Source: Cyanobium sp. NS01 (GTDB lineage Bacteria; Cyanobacteriota; Cyanobacteriia; PCC-6307; Cyanobiaceae). From it: 64,000 nt of DNA. Both the position numbers and the translations under genes were made by a program. Under the pieces are notes generated by a model. The model did no database searches. It saw only the letters and a program-made list of their open reading frames with translations, and was not told where the DNA came from. Of this stretch, positions 13,912 through 26,243 are shown piece by piece. Position 1 is the first letter of the stretch, and each line of letters opens with the position of its first letter. The DNA lies in assembly GCF_014280235.1 (NCBI RefSeq), contig NZ_CP047940.1, positions 1,736,001 through 1,800,000 of the forward strand, given 5' to 3'.

Positions 13912-14001
13912 TGGCAACGCTGGCCATCACCTGGCCGCAAGGTGTGCTCTGCGGAGAAGTTAGCCTTGCGGAGGCGGCTCAGGTGAATGGGGGAGTTAGA
14001 G
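13912..14001 (+). repeat. Integron attC-like site 1
   Basis: The left arm near 13914 (GCAACGCTGGCCATCACCTG) and the right arm, read on the other strand from 14001, form an imperfect inverted repeat. The paired CCAT/CACCTG/GCCGC blocks are separated by single unpaired bases on one side only, which is typical of attC extrahelical bases. The right end is GTTAGAG, one base off the GTTRRRY core. It shares arm sequence with the site at 22180. Confidence 0.6.
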
Positions 14002-14433: not shown

Positions 14434-15675
14434 CAGGGCTGATTCAAAGTGTGTCACAGGCGCTCTTGCCGCTCCTGTCAGCATGGGTTGAGGTCGGTGG
14501 AATCGCCTCCCTCTTGTGTCCAAAAGCGCTTCTGCCGCAACCGATCTCGACCTGATCAGCTACCTCAAGGCAATTCCGGACGCGCGCATGCGGCGCGGGG
14601 TGCGGTTTCCGGCCTGGTATCTGCTGCTGGTGGCGGTGCTGGGCATCCTCAGTGGTTGCCAGAGCCTGCGGGACCTGGAGCGTTTTGCCATCCGTCACCA
14701 CAGCGTTCTGACCGAGGCGCTGGGGCTCGAACTGCGCCGTCCGCCCTCGGATTCCTCGTTCCGCTACTTCTTCCTGCAGGTGGACGTGGCCGCCCTCTGC
14801 GCCGCGATCCGCGACTGGACGATCGCCCAGATCCCAGCTGGTGCAGGCGATCTTGATCAGCTGGTCTGCGACGGCAAGACGTTGAGAGGTTCCATCGAGC
14901 CCACTGCCGGCGGGGGATCCGCGTTCATCGCCCAGGTGACGCTCTACTCGGCTGCCTTGGGCGTAGCGATCAGCCAGGCCTGCTATGCCACGGGCGAGAA
15001 TCACGAGCGGGCGGTGCTGCGCCAGCTCCTCGGTGAACTGGATCTTGAGGGCGTGCTCATTCGGGCGGATGCCCTCCACACCCAGCGCCCGTTTTTCGAC
15101 AGCTCCAGGAGCAGGGGGCCGACTTCCTGCTGACCGTCAAAGCGAACCAGAAGACGCTGCACCGCCAGATCCGCAGCCAGTTCCAGGGCAAGCGCAGGAT
15201 CCCTTTTGTGGCAACGGATCACGAGATCAGCCACGGGCGCGACATCACCTGGACCCTGCGCGCGAAACAGGCACCGGAGCACATCCGCGAGAGCTGGGTC
15301 GGGACCAGCTGGATCGTGGAGGTGGCCGCCAACGGCACCCGAGACTCCAAGCCGTTCCAGGCCACGCACCTGTTTCTGAGCAGCCTGCGCACCACCCCAG
15401 AAGCCCTGCTGCAACTGGTGCGAGACCGCTGGAGCATTGAGGGCTGGCACTGGATCCGTGACACCCAGCTCCATGAAGACGCCCACCGCTACCGGGGCAA
15501 TGGCGCTGGGGCCATGGCGACACTGCACACGGCAGCCCTGAACCTGCTGAGGCTGGCGGGTTTTCAGTCGATCCGAGCCGGCATGCAGGCGGTGATGCAC
15601 GACATCACGGCGCTGCTGGCGATGGCGCGGCGCCAACCAGAACCGAACCCCTGTTGAGACTTTGAATCAGCCCTG
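14434..15675 (+). mobile_element. ISAs1-family insertion sequence, copy 1 (1242 bp)
   Basis: The 17-bp terminal inverted repeats match exactly: CAGGGCTGATTCAAAGT at 14434-14450 and its complement at 15659-15675. They are flanked by an exact 10-bp target duplication, CCATCCAACC (14424-14433 and 15676-15685). One transposase occupies the element, split by a -1 frameshift. Intact ends and duplication indicate a fairly recent insertion. Confidence 0.93.
14516..15657 (+). CDS. ISAs1-family transposase, two frames joined by a -1 shift
   Basis: The first frame runs from GTG at 14516 to a stop at 15133. It holds the DDE_Tnp_1-associated N-terminus (LISYLKAIPDARMRRGVR, LLLVAVLGILSGCQSLRDLE) and the first catalytic Asp in LVCDGKTLRGS. 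The second frame, open to 15657, supplies QGADFLLTVKANQKTLH, WIVEVAANG and the final DRWSIEGWHW ... EDAHRY block containing the catalytic Glu. The frames meet at CGTTTTTCG (15090-15098). The later IS copy has the same split at the same motif, so this may be programmed frameshifting rather than a dead gene. Confidence 0.85.
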
Positions 15676-16397: not shown

Positions 16398-17756
16398 TTA
16401 GGCTCTCGTCGTTAGACCACCCCCACCTATGCTTCTGCCGTCAGGGCTTAAATAGATCCCTTTCCCGCTAAATGCTGTTACAACACCTCTCTGATAAGAT
16501 ATTATCTTGGCAACTGTCTGGGTTCCATGCGTGGAGTCTCCTATTGCGTTCCAGAATGCTGCACTACGAAAACTTGTTCCTGCGTTACGGCCTCCTCTCG
16601 TACCGCAACCGCCACTAAAATGAACGCCAATTGATGTATTAGTTGCTTGTTGAAGAATCGGACTCCCTGAGTTGGCAGGCTGCGTATCAGTCCTGTATTC
16701 AATTCGTATATTGTTTGGATAATTAGCAGGCCCCGTGCCGGTTTGTTGCGTTTGACTATCAGCATTCCGGGGCCCAGAAGAGCCAAAATTCGGCGATGGG
16801 CCATCTACGCCATAGCCTGTGATTGTTACATTATTAGGCTGTGATCTTCTGGATAAAGGAATCAATGTTCCCTGTGCCTCTGCTGGAAATAAGCCCGTAA
16901 TCTGATTAGGCCTGACTCGAAAGACTGCCCAGTCATTGTCGGTTGTTTCCTGCGAAACAAAAGAGTCTGGAACGACGAAGTATTGGTCATCCACAGCTGC
17001 TGGCTGGGTTGTTCCAGTGGTATCTGATGGGGGAACATTAAATTCAACAAGAGTTGCCCCAGGACGATCACAGTGACCAGCAGTTATCATCCGATCCCCC
17101 CACACAATATATGCAGTGCACCCAATATCCATTAATCGACCTACCCCTCGGTTGGAAGAGGTAACACGATTATCAGATGCATCACATATAGATTCTGGAT
17201 TAATCCGTGGATTGAGTTTCTGACCTTGAGGCAGCAACTTACTGCTATCTGGACCAAGCATCTTCTGGAGTCCTTTCGGCAGCACGCCGTCGGATAGGCT
17301 TGAAGAACCAATGCCAATGATAATCTTACGGATTGCAATTGACCCTGTCGATAAATCCTCTTCAGGTGATGATAATGTGATATTTAGCACTGAACCTTTG
17401 AAACGCGGTGTGTGCCCATCCCATGACTCGATCTGAGAATCCGATAACCTAATGATTTCTCCAGTCGAATCTTCGATCTGCAAATAATCATCAACGCCAA
17501 GCTGTGGCTTTGAAAACTGCAACTGAATCCAAGTGGCACCTGGTAGTGAAATCTGTTTCCTATTACCGCTTTGCATGGCTGAGAAAAGTTGCGATAAGGA
17601 AGCTGGTGCAAACTCACTGGTAATCTCTAGTCTTGGTGTTGGAACAACTTCATCTGCAAAAGCCAACGAACCACGAGAAACAATCAATGGTGGTAGTCCT
17701 GCCGCTAGCAGTAGGCACACGCCAGTGGAAAATGAATTTCTCATGAAGTGGTGCAT
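16398..17756 (-). CDS. Secreted trypsin-like serine protease, C-terminally truncated
   Basis: The 452-residue protein has a signal peptide (hydrophobic TGVCLLLAAGLPPLIV, likely cleavage after AFA), an extra N-terminal region to ~residue 195 and an S1-type domain. The catalytic triad reads His228 in MITAGHCD, Asp275 in NDWAVFRV and Ser363 in ANSGSPIL. A C-terminal module (RGVVTAFSGKGIYLSPDGRS then a Gly run) belongs to a repeat that originally occurred at least three times; the rest lies out of frame downstream. GC is clearly lower than in core genes, indicating transfer. Substrate is unknown. Confidence 0.8.
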   Translation of the reverse strand: MHHFMRNSFSTGVCLLLAAGLPPLIVSRGSLAFADEVVPTPRLEITSEFAPASLSQLFSAMQSGNRKQISLPGATWIQLQFSKPQLGVDDYLQIEDSTGEIIRLSDSQIESWDGHTPRFKGSVLNITLSSPEEDLSTGSIAIRKIIIGIGSSSLSDGVLPKGLQKMLGPDSSKLLPQGQKLNPRINPESICDASDNRVTSSNRGVGRLMDIGCTAYIVWGDRMITAGHCDRPGATLVEFNVPPSDTTGTTQPAAVDDQYFVVPDSFVSQETTDNDWAVFRVRPNQITGLFPAEAQGTLIPLSRRSQPNNVTITGYGVDGPSPNFGSSGPRNADSQTQQTGTGPANYPNNIRIEYRTDTQPANSGSPILQQATNTSIGVHFSGGCGTRGGRNAGTSFRSAAFWNAIGDSTHGTQTVAKIISYQRGVVTAFSGKGIYLSPDGRSIGGGGLTTRA

Positions 17757-19088: not shown

Positions 19089-19952
19089 TCAGGCCTCCTC
19101 ACCGGGCGGCGGTGGCCGTAGGCCAGCGCTGTCCGGTGAGGAGGAACCGCCCGCCTGCGGGCGGATCAGGCCGCTGCGACGCTTCTCCCTCAGCCGGTAG
19201 CTGTCGCCCCGGATCGTCAGCACGTGGCTGTGGTGCAGCAGGCGATCGAGGATCGCCGTGGCGACCACCTGATCGCCAAACACCTCGCCCCACTCCATGA
19301 CGGGGCGGTTGGAGGTGATCAGCACGCTGCCGCGCTGATAGCAGCGGGAGATCAGCTGGAAGAACAGGTAGGCCGCGTTCGGCTCCAGCGGCAGGTAGCC
19401 CAGCTCATCAATGATCAGCAGCCGAGTTTTGGCGTACTGCGTCAGCCGGGCCTCCAGGACATGCTGCGCCTGGGCCTTGGCCAACGCGCTGATCAGCTCC
19501 ATGGCGCCGACGTACTGGACGCTGTGACCGAGCCGCACCGCCTCCCGGCCCAGCGCCACCGCCAGGTGGGTCTTGCCCACTCCCGGCGGGCCGAGCAGCA
19601 GCAGGGTGTCGCCGTTGGCCACCCAGCGACAGGTCGCCAGCTCTCGGATCTGAGCCGGATCAAGCGACGGCTGGGCCTCGAAATCGAACGCTTCCAGCGT
19701 GCGCACATACGGAAAGCGCGCCAGCCGCAGTGCCATCTCCATCCGCAGCTGGTCCTTGCGGGCCACCTCGGCTGCACACAGCCAGGCCAAGGCCTCGCGC
19801 AGGTTCATCTCCCGCCTGGCCGCCTCCTCCAGCAGCGCATCCAGGCGATCGCGGATCGCTGGCAGCCGCAGGCGGGTGAGCATCGCTTCCAGCTCCTCGG
19901 TCGGCACCGGTGGGGTGACCGGCGTAGATCGCTGGCGTGGGTTGGTGCTCAT
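19089..19952 (-). CDS. istB: IS21-family helper ATPase IstB
   Basis: The 287-residue AAA+ ATPase has Walker A LLLLGPPGVGKTHLAVALG and Walker B LLIIDELGYLPL, followed by SVLITSNRPVMEWGEVF. The N-terminal leucine-rich segment (LTRLRLPAIRDRLDALL) is typical of IstB. It starts 4 bases inside the end of istA (ATGA overlap). IstB assists target capture and activates IstA. The tail is proline- and glycine-rich. No damage is visible. Confidence 0.92.
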   Translation of the reverse strand: MSTNPRQRSTPVTPPVPTEELEAMLTRLRLPAIRDRLDALLEEAARREMNLREALAWLCAAEVARKDQLRMEMALRLARFPYVRTLEAFDFEAQPSLDPAQIRELATCRWVANGDTLLLLGPPGVGKTHLAVALGREAVRLGHSVQYVGAMELISALAKAQAQHVLEARLTQYAKTRLLIIDELGYLPLEPNAAYLFFQLISRCYQRGSVLITSNRPVMEWGEVFGDQVVATAILDRLLHHSHVLTIRGDSYRLREKRRSGLIRPQAGGSSSPDSAGLRPPPPGEEA

Positions 19953-21244
19953 GCCGCCACCTCCCCGATCAGCTCGGCATAGACGGCCAGAGGCCGTGCC
20001 AGTTCAGAGCTGCGGACCATGCGCTGCTCCTGATCACGACTTGCGTTGCCATCCCGCAGCGATCGCTCCGCCTCGCGCTGCTGCCGCTGCGGCACCAGGC
20101 CATCCCAATGACCGTCGATCACCTGGCGGCTGCGGCTACCGGGCCGCTGGCGCCTGTGCTCAGCGACGATCCGGCCGCCATAGCGGATCAGCACCTGCTG
20201 GTCCCGCACCAGCACGCTCACCCGCTGACGGATCAGCGCCTGCGGCGCCGAGTACCAGTTCGCCTCCACCTCCACGCAGCAGTCGCTGTGCACGATCCGC
20301 ACCAGCTCCCTCTCCGCCAGGAACGACGGCTTGGCCTCCAGTGGCTGCAACGCCTGGGATTCTGCGCGCACAAACCGCTCCAGCGGCGCCTCGCCGGTGG
20401 TGCCATGCACCCGCAGGTCGGCCACCTCGCGGCTCCAGCGCACCAGATGGGCCTCCAACTCCGCCCAGCTGCTGAACTCCCGCCCAGCGATGGCGTTCCT
20501 CTTGACGTACGCCACCCCGCGCTCGTCCTTGCCTTTGGTTCTGGCCCGGTACGGGCGACAGGCCCGCGGCTTGAACCCCCAGTAGCTGGCGAACTCCCCC
20601 AGCCGCTGGGCGAACACCACGATGTGGCGCTCGGGATCGTGCTGACTTACCAGCGCCCGGGCGTTGTCCACCAGCACCTCCTGCGGTACCCCGCCCCAGT
20701 GGCGGAAACCCTCCTCCAGGGCCTCGAGCCAGTGGTCCTGCTTCTCGCTGCGGAAGGCCCGCACCAGCAGCCGGCGCGAGTACCCCAAGGTGAGCACCGC
20801 CAGGTGCACCCGCACCCGCTCGCCGCCAATGCTCACCAGGCACTGGCCAAAGTCAGCCTGGAGCTGCCGGCCCGGCGGGGTCTCAAACCGCACCGTCGCC
20901 AGGGCCGCGTTGCGCAGCTCCCGCCGCCACGGCTCCACGGCACGCTCCACCGTGCGCAGGCTGACCTCGATTCCCTTCTCACTGGCCAGCTCCTGCCGCA
21001 CCACATCGGCATTGCCGCGGTGGGCCAGAAACCGCTGCCGCAGCCACTCTCGCTGGCCGTCGAGAACCGCGTTGCGGCAGGGCTTGCCGTAGGGCTGCCA
21101 GCCACCCTGCCGCAGGTACTTGCGCACCGTCTCGGGCGAGCAGCCCAGTTCCCTGGCAATGCGCCGCCGGCCCCAGCCTGCTGCCGAAAGCCGCTGCATG
21201 GCCTCCACATCCTGAGGGGTCTGCACCGCCGTCTCCACAGCCAT
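19949..21244 (-). CDS. istA: IS21-family transposase IstA
   Basis: With the ATG at 21244 the protein has 431 residues (MAVETAVQTPQDVEAMQRL). The N-terminal helix-turn-helix is GWGRRRIARELGCSPETVRKYL. The DDE integrase core includes QLQADFGQCLV (first Asp), EVLVDNARALV (second Asp) and ARTKGKDERGVAYVKRN (Glu). A C-terminal Mu-type beta domain follows. An upstream in-frame extension would run out of the element and is rejected. It forms the istAB operon and appears intact. Confidence 0.92.
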   Translation of the reverse strand: MAVETAVQTPQDVEAMQRLSAAGWGRRRIARELGCSPETVRKYLRQGGWQPYGKPCRNAVLDGQREWLRQRFLAHRGNADVVRQELASEKGIEVSLRTVERAVEPWRRELRNAALATVRFETPPGRQLQADFGQCLVSIGGERVRVHLAVLTLGYSRRLLVRAFRSEKQDHWLEALEEGFRHWGGVPQEVLVDNARALVSQHDPERHIVVFAQRLGEFASYWGFKPRACRPYRARTKGKDERGVAYVKRNAIAGREFSSWAELEAHLVRWSREVADLRVHGTTGEAPLERFVRAESQALQPLEAKPSFLAERELVRIVHSDCCVEVEANWYSAPQALIRQRVSVLVRDQQVLIRYGGRIVAEHRRQRPGSRSRQVIDGHWDGLVPQRQQREAERSLRDGNASRDQEQRMVRSSELARPLAVYAELIGEVAA

Positions 21245-22179
21245 CGGCTCCAGAGATGGCTCCCCTCCGCTGGCCTTGTCGTCCTGCCTGGCTCGCTCCA
21301 CGGGGTGGACCAGTTTTCGTGTCGCCTCCGGACCAGTTTTCGCTGTCGCCTGACACGGATGCGCTCCACACCACCCAGTCGTTTTTCGCTGGTGCCTCGC
21401 CCAGGGGGCCGACGTGCTCCTGAGCGTCAAGTCCAACCAGAAGAGCCTCTACCGTCAGATCGGTTGCCAGTTCCAGGGAAAGCGTCACATCCCTTTCACT
21501 GCAACGGATCACGAGAAGCGCCATGGGCGCGACACCGTCTGGGAACTACGGGCCCGGGAGGCGCCGGAGCACATCAAGGCCAACTGGCCCGGTAGCGCCT
21601 GGATCGTGGAGGTGATCACCGACACGCTGAGCCGCAAAGGGAAGCGCAGCGTGCGGCGGCACCTGTTTCTCACCAGCGTGCGCACCACGCCACCAGCCCT
21701 GCTGCGCCTGATCCGGCAGCGCTGGAGCATTGAGAACGAGTGGCACTGGGCCCGCGACGCCCAGCTGGGTGAGGACGCTCATCGCTACGCCAACCGGATC
21801 GGGGCCCCGGTGTTCGCCGTCCTGCGCACCATCGTGATGAACTTGCTGCGGCGAGGCGGCTACCGCTCGATCCGGCAGGGGCTCCGGGAGTTGGCCTACG
21901 ACATCCAAGGGATGCTGGCGCTTGGCGGCGTGGCCGCTCGAGCGAGCTCGGCTTGATCGTACTTTTAGGCAGCCCTGGGCTTGGCACAGAGGGCCTCAAG
22001 ACCAGTTCACCGACCTTCGCGGTGAGGCTGACCTCGGTGCAGGCCCTCATCCCCACCTCCTCAGCCAAGCCGCGTGGAATCCTCACGCCAAGGCTGTTCC
22101 CCCACTTCTGAACCTCCGTCTACATGCCCAGCTGTGGCTGACTACACCACTCTTTGCCTCGTTGGCCTTTGTCCCATCT

Positions 22180-22269
22180 CTCCAACGCTTGCCATCACCT
22201 GGCCGCAACAACCAACGGGGATATACAAGGTGCGCTTGGTGGCGGCTCAGGTGCATGGCATTGTTAGAC
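22180..22269 (+). repeat. Integron attC-like site 2
   Basis: It begins CTCCAACGCTTGCCATCACC and ends with the core GTTAGAC (22263-22269), a full GTTRRRY match. The right arm read on the other strand is GTCTAACAATGCCATGCACC. Pairing is good except for single extra bases on one strand, exactly the attC arrangement. Arms closely resemble attC-like site 1. The hsdM-like gene starts 143 bases later. Confidence 0.7.
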
Positions 22270-22411
22270 CTTTGAGCCAAAGCATCAGGATAATTGACTA
22301 GAACATCTTGTCCTTAATCCCAATATCATTATCAACGCCAACAGATTCAATGATACTGCTAGCACAATCAGTACGCTAAGATTTGCAAACCCAGAACCAG
22401 GTGCGCCTCAA

Positions 22412-23698
22412 GTGAAGTACAGTTGTACTACCCGAGAAGTCCTTGTGAACCTGGTTGATTCAGCGTGGAATGATCTTTGGTCGGCTGGCATTACCAATCC
22501 AATCGATATATCCCGAATCTTTTCCGAGATTGCCACTAGCAGATCTCGCACTAATAGCACCACTCTTATAGATCAACTGAAAGTTGACCAAGGGCTTTCA
22601 CGAGCCATTGAAAGGGCGTCTACTACATTTGCTCACTTGCTAAATGATAGCTCATCGGGAGATCACCTAGGAGATATCTACGAGTATATCCTCTCACATC
22701 TCTCAACGGCTGGCCACTTTGGCCAGTTCCGTACACCCACTCATCTAATTAACTTTATTTATGATGTCTTTCCCCCGCTTTCCCAGGGAACGATTTTAGA
22801 CCCAGCATGTGGTACTGGCGGCTTTTTGATTGAAGCCAATAAGAGGCAAGCGGATAGTCACTTTATTGGGTGCGAAATTGATAGGTCTGTTTTTGAACTG
22901 GCTGTTGCCAACGGCAAGCTTCATGGAATTGAAAGGCTAAATGTTATGCGCCAATCTGGAATTGGCCTAGCCGATCTAAAGCCTGATTTAATCGCCACAA
23001 ATCCTCCTTTCTCTGGAACCTTTGATGAGCCCTATTTCTCGGATATTGCGGGCTTAACAACAAGCAAGACCGAGCTCGCATTTTTATGCAAATGCCTTGA
23101 GTTGCTAGAAGAAAGTGGTCGATGCGCGATTGTGCTTCCTCTCGGTGTGGCCTCGAATACCAGTAAAGAGTTTGTACAAGTTCGCAAAGCTCTTCTGAGG
23201 AATGCTTCCATCAAGGCGATTGTTGAACTTCCTAGAGGAAGCTTCTTGCCGTACACTGATGCCAAGACTGTAATCATCTTTTTTGAGAAAGACAGAAGAG
23301 GAACATCTGAGTTTATATCTGCTGTCTGCACCGATGATGGCTTTACTCTAGATGATGCCAGAAAACCAACAGGAACATCTACTCTGCCTATTATTGCAAG
23401 GTGTATTGACCTTGGAATCTTCTCGCCAGGGAGTAGTTTCTGCAGGGAATCATCAATACAAGAGCTTGATGACTACCTCAGACTAGTTCCATCAAGAATT
23501 AATAGCTTAGCATCAAGCGCAATTAGCTTTCAAAGAAAGAAGCGATCGCTTAAGGACGAATGTCGTGCTGAGATTGATGAGCTTTTCGTCGCGGTGAATA
23601 AGCTACAGTCTGTTATGTTAAGACTGTCTACCTTTGCCAAGAGTTCAACACAGTGCCCTACGAAAATGAAGGAGGATGCAGTCGATGTTGCTCTGTGA
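22412..23698 (+). CDS. Type I-like N6-adenine DNA methyltransferase (HsdM family)
   Basis: The 428-residue protein (GTG start) has the HsdM-type entry GQFRTPTHLI (104-113), SAM-binding motif I LDPACGTGGFLIEA (129-142) and catalytic motif IV TNPPF (196-200), followed by the ELPRGSFLPYTDAKTVIIFF block. It should methylate adenine in a sequence set by the specificity protein. It overlaps the downstream specificity gene by 23 bases. Compared with usual HsdM (~500 aa) the N-terminal helical domain is short. GC is well below the host core. There is no hsdR helicase nuclease; a smaller nuclease candidate lies beyond. Confidence 0.85.
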   Translation: MKYSCTTREVLVNLVDSAWNDLWSAGITNPIDISRIFSEIATSRSRTNSTTLIDQLKVDQGLSRAIERASTTFAHLLNDSSSGDHLGDIYEYILSHLSTAGHFGQFRTPTHLINFIYDVFPPLSQGTILDPACGTGGFLIEANKRQADSHFIGCEIDRSVFELAVANGKLHGIERLNVMRQSGIGLADLKPDLIATNPPFSGTFDEPYFSDIAGLTTSKTELAFLCKCLELLEESGRCAIVLPLGVASNTSKEFVQVRKALLRNASIKAIVELPRGSFLPYTDAKTVIIFFEKDRRGTSEFISAVCTDDGFTLDDARKPTGTSTLPIIARCIDLGIFSPGSSFCRESSIQELDDYLRLVPSRINSLASSAISFQRKKRSLKDECRAEIDELFVAVNKLQSVMLRLSTFAKSSTQCPTKMKEDAVDVAL

Positions 23699-24218
23699 TC
23701 TTGTTTCACCATTGCGCATCAGAGTGTCTCCAGGCGAGTTTGGTTTACACAAGTACTATGTTGGCCTCGAACATATTGAAAAGAATACTGGAGTCGTCAA
23801 GCCATCTTTAACCTCTGATGAGAAGCCTTCATCTGCAAAGACATTCTTTCCAAATGGGGCATTATTGTTTGGCAAGATACGCCCCGAACTCCGCAAGGTC
23901 GGCGTTAGTTCATGCGAGGGAATCTGCTCAACTGATATCTCAGTCTTTATTCCAGTAGACGAGGCCCAAGCTAATGCAATAGCACTCGTACTGCGAAGTG
24001 ATAGAGCGGCCGATTATTTTAGTTCTTTACGAACCGGAACGAGTCTTCCTCGAGTTCGAGAGGATGACATTCTAAGATTTAACATGAATTGGTGTTCAGG
24101 TTATCTTCTGAAGGAACTTCAAGAGTTATCTACTCTATTGGCAACATTTAGGCTTAGCGCTCTTGATGTAGAGGCAAAGTGCCGGCACTTAGAGGCCAGA
24201 ATCTCTTCTTTGTTGTAG
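23676..24218 (+). CDS. Half-size type I specificity subunit (HsdS-like, one TRD)
   Basis: The 180-residue protein carries one target-recognition domain (YVGLEHIEKNTGV ... GALLFGKIRPELRKVGV ... TDISVFIPVD ... LRTGTSLPRVREDDIL, given in parts) and one C-terminal coiled coil (ELQELSTLLATFRLSALDVE). Normal HsdS has two TRDs; a half subunit would have to dimerise and would be expected to recognise a symmetric bipartite site. It overlaps hsdM, so the two are co-translated. It ends 2 bases before the convergent nuclease candidate. Confidence 0.78.
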   Translation: MQSMLLCDLVSPLRIRVSPGEFGLHKYYVGLEHIEKNTGVVKPSLTSDEKPSSAKTFFPNGALLFGKIRPELRKVGVSSCEGICSTDISVFIPVDEAQANAIALVLRSDRAADYFSSLRTGTSLPRVREDDILRFNMNWCSGYLLKELQELSTLLATFRLSALDVEAKCRHLEARISSLL

Positions 24219-24220
24219 GC

Positions 24221-25006
24221 TTATGCTTGTCCTCGGCGTACAGTCTTGAGCCGTTCAACAAACTCCAAATATCTCTTCATCTCTGGATCTGCTGATGCCA
24301 GCTCAGCTCTTTTATCCTTGGCTGCTAATGACCTTGTAGCAACCATTCGTACTAGTCCCCCAAAGTTTTGCGCATATGATACATTGGAGCCTCTTAGGCT
24401 AATTGGCCCTGTCCTTCTCTCTCTTACATTGCTTGCATTAACTGGTTCTCCGTGGTGAACGCAACGCGAGGGATCGCATCCATCTGGACACGAACCCCTG
24501 TCAACAAATGATCCACCGCGTTCAATGTGAAGTAAGTCCCTTAGACTGGCAATTGATCTAGATCGAAACAATCCTATCTCATCTATTCGTGGGTACACAT
24601 GGATTCCACCAGTCTCTGCCCATCCCCATGTAATAACCACAAGAAGATCGTCCTCGCCAATCTCGCTGATTAATGAGTCAAAGTGCGCCTTGGACTCGTC
24701 TGCGTTAATGACCATAGATTTAACTTCGATTCTGAAGAGTTCACCAGTCTTAGTCTCAGGTCCCCATGGAGTTACATCCGATATACATGCAAAGTCATTG
24801 AATTCATGATTGGGGATCCAAGCCAGTGATACATCCATAGTGCGGAGATGTTGACTTGCGTAGAATCCCCACAACGATTCCATTACAAGCCCAAGCCCAC
24901 TGCCAATCCGACCGCCTCTCATGCAGAAGTGCTCTAGGGTAAAAAGATTAATCTGATCTTTGACTAAAACAGCGCATTGGATCAATGCTTCGCTTGAGGT
25001 TGCCAA
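24221..25006 (-). CDS. Candidate PD-(D/E)XK restriction nuclease
   Basis: The 261-residue protein (TTG start at 25006) has a plausible PD-(D/E)XK core: Glu43 in VMESLWGFY, Asp71 in HEFNDFACISD and Glu94-x-Lys96 in LFRIEVKSM. It also has a possible metal cluster, CPDGCDPSRCVHHGEP, and a C-terminal NFGGLVRMVATRSLA segment. I do not recognise a named enzyme. It is tail-to-tail with the hsdM-hsdS pair, 2 bases apart, and lies in the same attC-bounded segment, so a restriction partner is the natural inference. Alternatives are a nicking or repair nuclease. Confidence 0.6.
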   Translation of the reverse strand: MATSSEALIQCAVLVKDQINLFTLEHFCMRGGRIGSGLGLVMESLWGFYASQHLRTMDVSLAWIPNHEFNDFACISDVTPWGPETKTGELFRIEVKSMVINADESKAHFDSLISEIGEDDLLVVITWGWAETGGIHVYPRIDEIGLFRSRSIASLRDLLHIERGGSFVDRGSCPDGCDPSRCVHHGEPVNASNVRERRTGPISLRGSNVSYAQNFGGLVRMVATRSLAAKDKRAELASADPEMKRYLEFVERLKTVRRGQA

Positions 25007-25174
25007 AGCCTATGGCCTCTAATCCGATCCAGTGTATATCATAAGACCTTAGTATTGGCGTACTACTTTGGTGGGCGTTGAGAATCTGCCTCACCTGTCA
25101 AGATGCTATTAGGCTTAAATGAAGATCATTGACATTGGCGATTGGGTATAACTCTGGATGCTTGAATCGAAAAG

Positions 25175-25262
25175 GTCTAACGCTCAAGATCAGCGGCGGG
25201 CAAGAAGCCGAACACAAAGAAAGGGAATTATTGGACCCGACCGCTGCATCTTGATGTTAGCT
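25175..25262 (+). repeat. Integron attC-like site 3
   Basis: The left end GTCTAAC (25175-25181) is a perfect RYYYAAC core. The right end is GTTAGCT (25256-25262), one base off GTTRRRY. The left arm CTAACGCTCAAGATCAGCGG pairs with the other-strand right arm CTAACATCAAGATGCAGCGG, with extra G and T bases on one side only. Arm sequence differs from sites 1 and 2 but geometry is the same. Nothing else is visible in 25007-25364. Confidence 0.72.
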
Positions 25263-25364: not shown

Positions 25365-26243
25365 TCACTTACCCACTAAACCAGGATTCGTCAAATCAGA
25401 TAGAGGATCAATGATCTGGCATGAGCATTGCTGGTATTCCCTGATTGCCGGATAAATTGCAAAGAAAGGATAGAATCTACAGATATTATCGCCAGCTGAG
25501 ATGGCAATGCCAGCGAGCTTCGTGTCAGAGGCTTCTGGCATGAGGTTAACAATAGGGCCACCACTCATGCCATTTAGACAATCATGATTTACCTCGGACT
25601 CGGAGACATCAAAGGAAATCAGCATTTCATGGTTATCCTCAATGAGAAGAACGCCGGTAACAAGACTTTTGTGAACGGTGGTCATATGAGTGAACCCTTT
25701 CCTGGTATCATCATGCGCGAATTCATTAAGACGGAAGGGATACCCGCAAACAGTTAAGAATTGACCCTCGAAGAACTGATCCTGATTAAGGCAGGGAGGC
25801 GTTTCACCGTCAAGGTCGATAAAGCAGTCGGGAGCAGATCCTGGAAAGGGATCAAATAGCTCGATTAAGCAAATATCTTCGTGATCTACAAGTGGTATTT
25901 CGTGCCTGATTCGTTCACTAATATTCCACAGCCTCCTTGGATACATAAAGTCTAGGAGAGAGTCCCATCGTGGACGGGAGTGCATTGAAACCCAGAACGG
26001 AGACTCATTCAGGAAGCCCTCGGGCATATTGTTGGTCAGAACATGTTTAGCGGTCAACAAGAAGAAGACCCCACCAAACCTAAGTAATACTGAGCTCCCA
26101 GCCCCATACATCCAGTCCACATGAAAGTAGCCACGCTCAGCCAAAGACTGTTCTAATGACGTAAAAAAGAGTCTTCGTGCAGATTTTGCCGCATTCGACA
26201 AAGGCGTCTGCTGTAGAAGGATTGCAGGGTCAATCTGGGTCAT
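25365..26243 (-). CDS. Trypsin-like serine protease domain protein, cytoplasmic
   Basis: The 292-residue protein has no signal peptide. A chymotrypsin-fold triad is readable: His67 in FLLTAKHVLT, Asp123 in VDHEDICLIEL and Ser227 in LNGMSGGPIVN. The N-terminal ~45 residues are unassigned. Low GC and odd codon use match the hsdM cassette. It lies 103 bases beyond attC-like site 3 in antisense orientation. Intracellular trypsin-like proteins occur in some bacterial conflict systems, but no partner gene is adjacent here, so a defence role is speculative. Confidence 0.72.
   Translation of the reverse strand: MTQIDPAILLQQTPLSNAAKSARRLFFTSLEQSLAERGYFHVDWMYGAGSSVLLRFGGVFFLLTAKHVLTNNMPEGFLNESPFWVSMHSRPRWDSLLDFMYPRRLWNISERIRHEIPLVDHEDICLIELFDPFPGSAPDCFIDLDGETPPCLNQDQFFEGQFLTVCGYPFRLNEFAHDDTRKGFTHMTTVHKSLVTGVLLIEDNHEMLISFDVSESEVNHDCLNGMSGGPIVNLMPEASDTKLAGIAISAGDNICRFYPFFAIYPAIREYQQCSCQIIDPLSDLTNPGLVGK

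What the first reader, a model, noticed from the sequence alone, without database searches (positions are those of the whole stretch)
22270..25262. A compact modification-restriction system bounded by attC-like sites
Between attC-like sites 2 and 3 lie an N6-adenine methylase (DPACGTGG, NPPF), a one-TRD specificity subunit overlapping it by 23 bases, and 2 bases away tail-to-tail a PD-(D/E)XK candidate (D71, E94-V-K96) with a Cys/His cluster. There is no HsdR helicase. A methylase plus half-S plus stand-alone nuclease is not a standard type I layout. It could be a distinct restriction system carried as one 2.9-kb cassette.
Basis: partly seen in the sequence, partly recalled or inferred. Interest (0 to 1): 0.78.

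Follow-up and report, generated by a model that had tools for sequence, protein, structure and literature searches.

The report
AhdI-like restriction system as gene cassette
A small DNA-cutting and DNA-marking defence set sits in a mobile gene cassette of a bacterial chromosome; its layout is a known in-between type of restriction system (like AhdI), but its marking enzyme looks as if it came from a different line, and some marine viruses carry a lone copy of the cutter while their own genomes lack the site it probably cuts.

Summary
In detail: M (22412-23698), half-S (23676-24218) and a convergent 261-aa nuclease R (24221-25006) lie between attC sites at 22180-22269 and 25175-25262. R is a Type II restriction enzyme: PADLOC REase_II PDLC03408 (E 1.2e-67), EcoRV/SwaI/HincII-like predicted fold, invariant E43, D71, E94, K96. 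The layout is not new. Of 13 cellular relatives found, the 12 with readable flanks keep S tail-to-tail with R. One has M of 59.6 kDa, S of 25.4 kDa and a C.AhdI-like neighbour, so this is the AhdI kind (Type IIH, 'Type 1 1/2'). Different here: the window's M and S score better as Type I than as AhdI-type subunits, M lacks about 60-90 residues near its N-terminus and S about 35. It looks like an AhdI-family nuclease joined to a Type I-derived half-S methylase, carried as one cassette; the M tree does not prove the swap (AU p 0.4). Cyanophage records with a lone R homologue have no GACN5GTC and no GACN6GTC (4 of 4); 8 of 8 relatives without it have GACN6GTC and 7 of 8 GACN5GTC. Predicted site: GACN5-6GTC. 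Activity is untested.

The parts
22180..22269 (+). attC site bounding the cassette on the left (native integron type; recombination point at 22263/22264 by the G^TT rule, recalled)
   Evidence: left arm has 6 copies in the genome; right arm
22412..23698 (+). M: gamma-type N6-adenine DNA methyltransferase subunit, 428 aa, short N-terminal region
23676..24218 (+). S: single-TRD (half) specificity subunit, 180 aa
24221..25006 (-). R: AhdI-family Type II restriction endonuclease, PD-(D/E)XK, with Cys/His cluster, 261 aa
25175..25262 (+). attC site at the right end, probably the cassette's own (recombination point at 25256/25257 by the same rule); strand not settled by the scan

Best explanation
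A Type II restriction-modification system of the AhdI kind (Type IIH, 'Type 1 1/2') carried as one roughly 3-kb integron cassette. Inferred working: two M and two half-S subunits form an M2S2 methyltransferase that puts N6-methyladenine on both halves of an interrupted palindrome; a dimer of the separate nuclease R cuts the same palindrome when unmethylated, as on incoming phage DNA. No ATP-driven HsdR motor is involved. Shown here: gene set, families, catalytic residues, predicted fold class, conserved tail-to-tail layout, cassette ends. Inferred: activity, M2S2 assembly, that M/S and R share a site, and the site itself, most likely GACN5GTC and/or GACN6GTC. M and S look derived from a Type I lineage and have probably replaced the M and S that normally travel with this R.
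For: R: PDLC03408 E 1.2e-67; E43, D71, E94, K96 invariant in 14 of 14; model pLDDT 82.6, best re-aligned solved matches SwaI Z 9.7, EcoRV 9.6, HincII 9.3. Layout: 12 cellular R homologues among 29 pattern loci plus one more, L103; of these 13, S is tail-to-tail with R in 12 and M precedes S in 11; the misses (L021 for both, L016 for M) are cut by contig ends. AhdI link: L103 has M 532 aa/59.6 kDa, S 227 aa/25.4 kDa, R 314 aa and, next to R, a gene matching C.AhdI (1y7y, E 2.6e-33); M.AhdI has 60- and 25-kDa subunits, is M2S2 and methylates GACN5GTC (PMC2878638 introduction). Lineage of M/S: window M 199.8 bits to MTase_I PDLC03021 against 77.8 to MTase_II PDLC03218, whereas the three R-linked M tested (of ten) give 445-802 to PDLC03218 and 167-191 to their best Type I model; window S 62.8 (Specificity_I) against 47.3 (Specificity_II), three R-linked S 81-89 against 111-261. 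Site.
Against: No activity data. M and S are shorter than relatives, so the methylase could be weak or dead; the host keeps many GACN5/6GTC sites (58 and 116 in 884 kb; N5 slightly low, p 0.023, rank 115 of 849 tests), so an active R of that specificity needs a working M/S. The swap of M/S is not proven by tree: holding window M with the R-linked M is not rejected (AU p 0.4), and window M has a long branch. Phage R is only 35-39% identical to window R, so its site may differ. One phage without R (S-H25) also has no GACN5GTC.
Confidence: 0.82

Rival explanations
1. A decaying remnant: R came from an AhdI-type system, and M and S are trimmed, partly inactive pieces, so the cassette no longer restricts or modifies.
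For: M is 428 aa against 514-625 aa in five of six closed R-linked ORFs (the sixth, L032, is called at 331 aa) and 489-512 aa in eight of the nine nearest Type I-like ones (the ninth, L059, is split in two frames). S is 180 aa against 221-239 aa in ten closed R-linked S. No site avoidance in the host.
Against: All three ORFs are open with intact catalytic motifs; the 23-base overlap and 2-base gap are tight; R keeps every column that is invariant in the alignment, which by definition includes it, and lacks no active-site residue.
Confidence: 0.13
2. A Type I system that lost HsdR, in which R is an unrelated nuclease that happens to be a neighbour.
For: M and S score best against Type I profiles.
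Against: Homologues of this R sit tail-to-tail with a half-S in 12 of 12 readable cellular loci from seven phyla, so the neighbourhood is not chance; S has one TRD, not two.
Confidence: 0.04
3. A new restriction mechanism distinct from Type II.
For: No Pfam or NCBIfam model matches R.
Against: R has a PADLOC Type II model, an EcoRV/SwaI-like predicted fold and AhdI-type neighbours in relatives.
Confidence: 0.01

Closest known systems
AhdI restriction-modification system (Type IIH, 'Type 1 1/2')
   Same: Separate gamma M, single-TRD S and Type IIP-like REase; R of the same family by way of L103; in relatives the same M-S order with R tail-to-tail
   Different: Window M and S score as Type I lineage and are shorter, no C controller gene, and the set is an integron cassette
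Type I restriction-modification systems (HsdM/HsdS)
   Same: M catalytic domain, the LW..GITNP N-terminal motif shared with Type I-like M and the TRD fold (PacII S subunit is the top Foldseek match)
   Different: One TRD instead of two, no HsdR in the cassette, N-terminal region of M cut down
EcoRV / SwaI / HincII (Type IIP REases)
   Same: Predicted fold of R and PD-(D/E)XK site
   Different: About 10% identity; extra Cys/His cluster; expected site is an interrupted palindrome
DrdI (GACN6GTC)
   Same: Its site is one of the two missing from phages with the lone R homologue
   Different: M.DrdI is one fused M~S chain (PMC3874165 table passage); its R was not compared here

Membership tests
Type IIH / 'Type 1 1/2' R-M | gamma N6-adenine MTase subunit M with motif I and NPPF | tested here: met
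Type IIH / 'Type 1 1/2' R-M | separate S subunit with one TRD | tested here: met
   180 aa, model with one TRD and one long helix, aligns to half of PacII S
Type IIH / 'Type 1 1/2' R-M | separate Type IIP-like REase, no HsdR | tested here: met
   only the cassette was checked for HsdR, not the genome
Type IIH / 'Type 1 1/2' R-M | M2S2 assembly | not testable with these tools
   needs biochemistry
Type IIH / 'Type 1 1/2' R-M | symmetric bipartite recognition shared by M/S and R | tested here: inconclusive
   only indirect, from phage site loss for the R family
AhdI system proper | R of the AhdI-type family | tested here: met
   44% identity to R of L103, whose neighbours match AhdI in size (M, S) and sequence (C); the sequence of R.AhdI itself was not compared
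AhdI system proper | M of the clade that travels with this R, with its N-terminal domain | tested here: not met
   profile scores reversed, domain absent; tree placement itself open
AhdI system proper | C controller gene before R | tested here: not met
   168 bases between R start and attC; no tblastn match in the window. With the same query only 4 of 13 cellular relatives show one before R (L103, L017, L007, L031; L021 has a weak match at E 0.09), so its lack does not set the window apart
Type I R-M | two-TRD S, and HsdR in the locus | tested here: not met
Integron gene cassette | attC at both ends, integrase in the genome, foreign base composition | tested here: met
   mobility itself not tested

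The most novel reading that the evidence does not exclude
One restriction nuclease family has been re-partnered twice: in this chromosome an AhdI-type nuclease works with a trimmed Type I-derived half-S methylase as a mobile cassette, and in cyanomyoviruses the same family acts alone, without its own M and S, as a weapon against host or rival DNA; the phages protect themselves by having lost every GACN5GTC and GACN6GTC site.
Probability: 0.45. Interest if true: 0.7.

Novelty: new variant of a known kind. Interest (0 to 1): 0.46.

Why it matters
'Type 1 1/2' systems are described as a Type IIP nuclease with a Type I-like methylase (PMC6158711, passages) and as natural intermediates between the types (PMC3874165, passages). 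This one would be a case where the methylase core appears to have been exchanged while the nuclease stayed, in a form small enough to move as one cassette. The phage counterpart gives a concrete predicted site for a nuclease family that had no match among solved structures by sequence, so both cutting and protection can be tested directly.

Tried and rejected
Sequence searches of R against Pfam, NCBIfam, PHROGs and the PDB gave nothing useful. Plasmid records hold no relative of window R or L014 R at E 1e-5. Scans of viral and genome contigs with window R or a four-sequence alignment confirmed no relative; a scan with the phage R found one. A degenerate DNA pattern for NFGGLVRM worked, so the 12 loci are biased to those keeping that motif; the other 17 of its 29 loci do not encode R. 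R is rare: 1 of 197 relatives and 1 of 386 phylum genomes, the window's own each time (the samples overlap), and 2 of 398 genomes of the phylum of L014, one being the L014 genome itself.

I expected the M tree to show a partner swap. All 10 R-linked M used (at least two are fragments) form one branch at 100/100 and window M falls outside, but forcing window M with them costs only 0.58 log-likelihood units, p-AU 0.4; the swap claim rests on profiles and domain make-up. The R tree places window R with phage R at 68/87, not firm.

Other sites depleted in phages were set aside because they are missing with and without R: GACN3GTC and CCAN5TGG. Ungapped 6-base palindromes are also strongly depleted in WH25-B; for the other phages I printed only the GAC and CCA ones. 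GACN5GTC is weaker evidence than GACN6GTC because S-H25, without R, also lacks it. Host avoidance of either site: none worth claiming (4 GACN5GTC in 103 kb; 58 in 884 kb). Promoter and terminator scans found no more than shuffles. The BFVD fold search gave no clear match, best E 5e-3.

Papers: only listings were seen in the searches. Cyanophage with DrdI and phage S-M1 gave no paper. None of the titles and abstract starts listed reports this cassette or the phage nuclease, but searches listed 12 of 16, 12 of 52 and 10 of 125 papers, and the library is open-licence only. That integrons carry defence genes is already in print (PMC12409362, listing only).

Full report
What is there. The window is G000:C1:1736001-1800000 of a 2.75-Mb one-contig genome whose name is not given. 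The stretch has about 45% G+C in a genome of about 68% (884 kb sampled).

Cassette. Both attC sites have the expected end boxes with one mismatch each and long pairing arms. The first scan alone is not specific, with 5 other hits in the window; the stricter one keeps only these two places there, but cannot tell the strand of the second and misses a third native site. The left arm of the first is a native repeat: 6 places in the genome within 2 mismatches, all on one strand, 0 for the reversed control. One is about 2.5 kb from the full integron integrase at 995.6-996.5 kb, three are within about 2 kb of a partial integrase match at 305 kb, and one more is in the window at 13916. The second attC differs in its arms, as expected for a site that came with the cassette. 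The recombination points (rule recalled) give a cassette of 22264-25256, 2993 bases.

R is a Type II restriction enzyme. PADLOC REase_II PDLC03408 matches residues 7-252 at E 1.2e-67. From an NFGGLVRM pattern scan of the genome collection, 29 loci matched and 12 encode relatives of 41-50% identity. In an alignment of 14, E43, D71, E94 and K96 never vary. The AlphaFold2 model (pLDDT 82.6) is closest to SwaI, EcoRV and HincII, Z 9.7, 9.6 and 9.3 by VIA-align among Foldseek's candidates; Foldseek's own best E was 2.2e-3, so the match is to the fold class, not to one enzyme.

The layout is a known one. Of the 12 loci plus one later find (L103), 12 of 13 show a half-S tail-to-tail with R, from a 15-base overlap to a 51-base gap, and 11 of 13 show M before S (in four of these the stretch cuts M); L021 (both) and L016 (M) are cut by contig ends. 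In L103 the set is M 59.6 kDa, S 25.4 kDa, R 35.5 kDa and, next to R, a gene matching C.AhdI (1y7y, E 2.6e-33). A C-like gene precedes R in 4 of the 13. M.AhdI has 60- and 25-kDa subunits, M2S2, and the site GACN5GTC (PMC2878638, introduction read); reviews name this layout 'Type 1 1/2' or Type IIH (PMC3874165 and PMC4081073, passages seen).

What is different. Against PADLOC, the three R-linked M proteins tested (L014, L010, L007, of ten) score 445-802 bits to MTase_II PDLC03218, 150-175 to MTase_I PDLC03021 and 167-191 to their best Type I model; window M gives 77.8 and 199.8. For S the same three loci give 111-261 (Specificity_II PDLC03590) against 81-89 for the best Type I model; window S gives 47.3 and 62.8. 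Window M carries the LW..GITNP motif of Type I-like M and a C-terminal helical-looking part, but lacks about 60-90 residues that follow the motif in its nearest Type I-like relatives; R-linked M have another N-terminal region and end shortly after the catalytic domain. Window S lacks about 35 N-terminal residues. The M tree puts all 10 R-linked M on one 100/100 branch with window M outside, but the AU test does not reject joining them (p 0.4). So the partner exchange is probable, not shown.

Site. tblastn found the R homologue in 3 of 50,697 phage records (two further records of one phage matched weakly, E about 2) and, with the phage protein, in one IMG/VR contig. In the three named records it lies directly after psbD with no M or S within 6 kb; in two relatives without it, S-H25 and S-RS29, psbD is followed directly by the next gene. 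In the contig L034 no M or S homologue was found in the 10 kb held. Whole-record counts: GACN6GTC is 0 in 4 of 4 records with R (three of 172-173 kb, one 105-kb contig) and 18-32 in 8 of 8 relatives without. GACN5GTC is 0 in 4 of 4 with R, 14-19 in 7 of 8 without, and 0 in S-H25. WH25-B would be expected to hold 26.1 of each. This points to GACN6GTC, and probably GACN5GTC, as what the phage enzyme cuts. The records are not four independent events: QB2 and S-M1 give identical control counts and look like near copies, and WH25-B and S-M1 share a near-identical R although their capsid genes differ by about 11%, which suggests recent transfer. WH25-B also carries two annotated DNA methyltransferases elsewhere, which I did not test.

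Limits. Nothing here shows activity. The site for window R is extrapolated from a 35-39% identical phage protein and from the AhdI link. The host has plenty of both sites (58 GACN5GTC and 116 GACN6GTC in 884 kb), so if R is active on them M/S must protect them.

Noticed in passing
L002:5995-6696, L003:5995-6696, L004:5995-6696, L034:3358-4110: Cyanophages WH25-B, QB2 and S-M1 carry a lone homologue of R right after psbD, annotated hypothetical, and an IMG/VR contig carries one too (its neighbours were not examined beyond M and S); all four records have no GACN5GTC and no GACN6GTC site.
   Followed up: yes
phage record MT162468.2 (L093, L097): S-H25 has no R homologue but also no GACN5GTC site while keeping 22 GACN6GTC; some other enzyme or host may select against the first.
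   Followed up: partly
L080-L091: All five cyanophages checked are strongly depleted in GACN3GTC and CCAN5TGG, and WH25-B in many ungapped 6-base palindromes.
   Followed up: no
25365-26243 and 16401-17756, minus strand: Two low-G+C genes for trypsin-like proteins near the attC sites; the first is below Pfam's cut-off and has a weak PADLOC LmuA match (E 8.7e-8).
   Followed up: no
13916-13991: A third attC-like site of the native type in the window (left arm 1 mismatch, right arm 1 mismatch; the right-arm search alone is expected to hit 0.25 times by chance).
   Followed up: partly
19092-21436 minus; 21414-21956 and 14516-15133 plus: IS21-type IstB/IstA pair and fragments of DDE transposases to the left of the cassette.
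   Followed up: no
G000:C1:303004-305358: Three native attC left arms beside a partial integrase match (60.7 bits, below cut-off), perhaps a second, broken integron platform.
   Followed up: no
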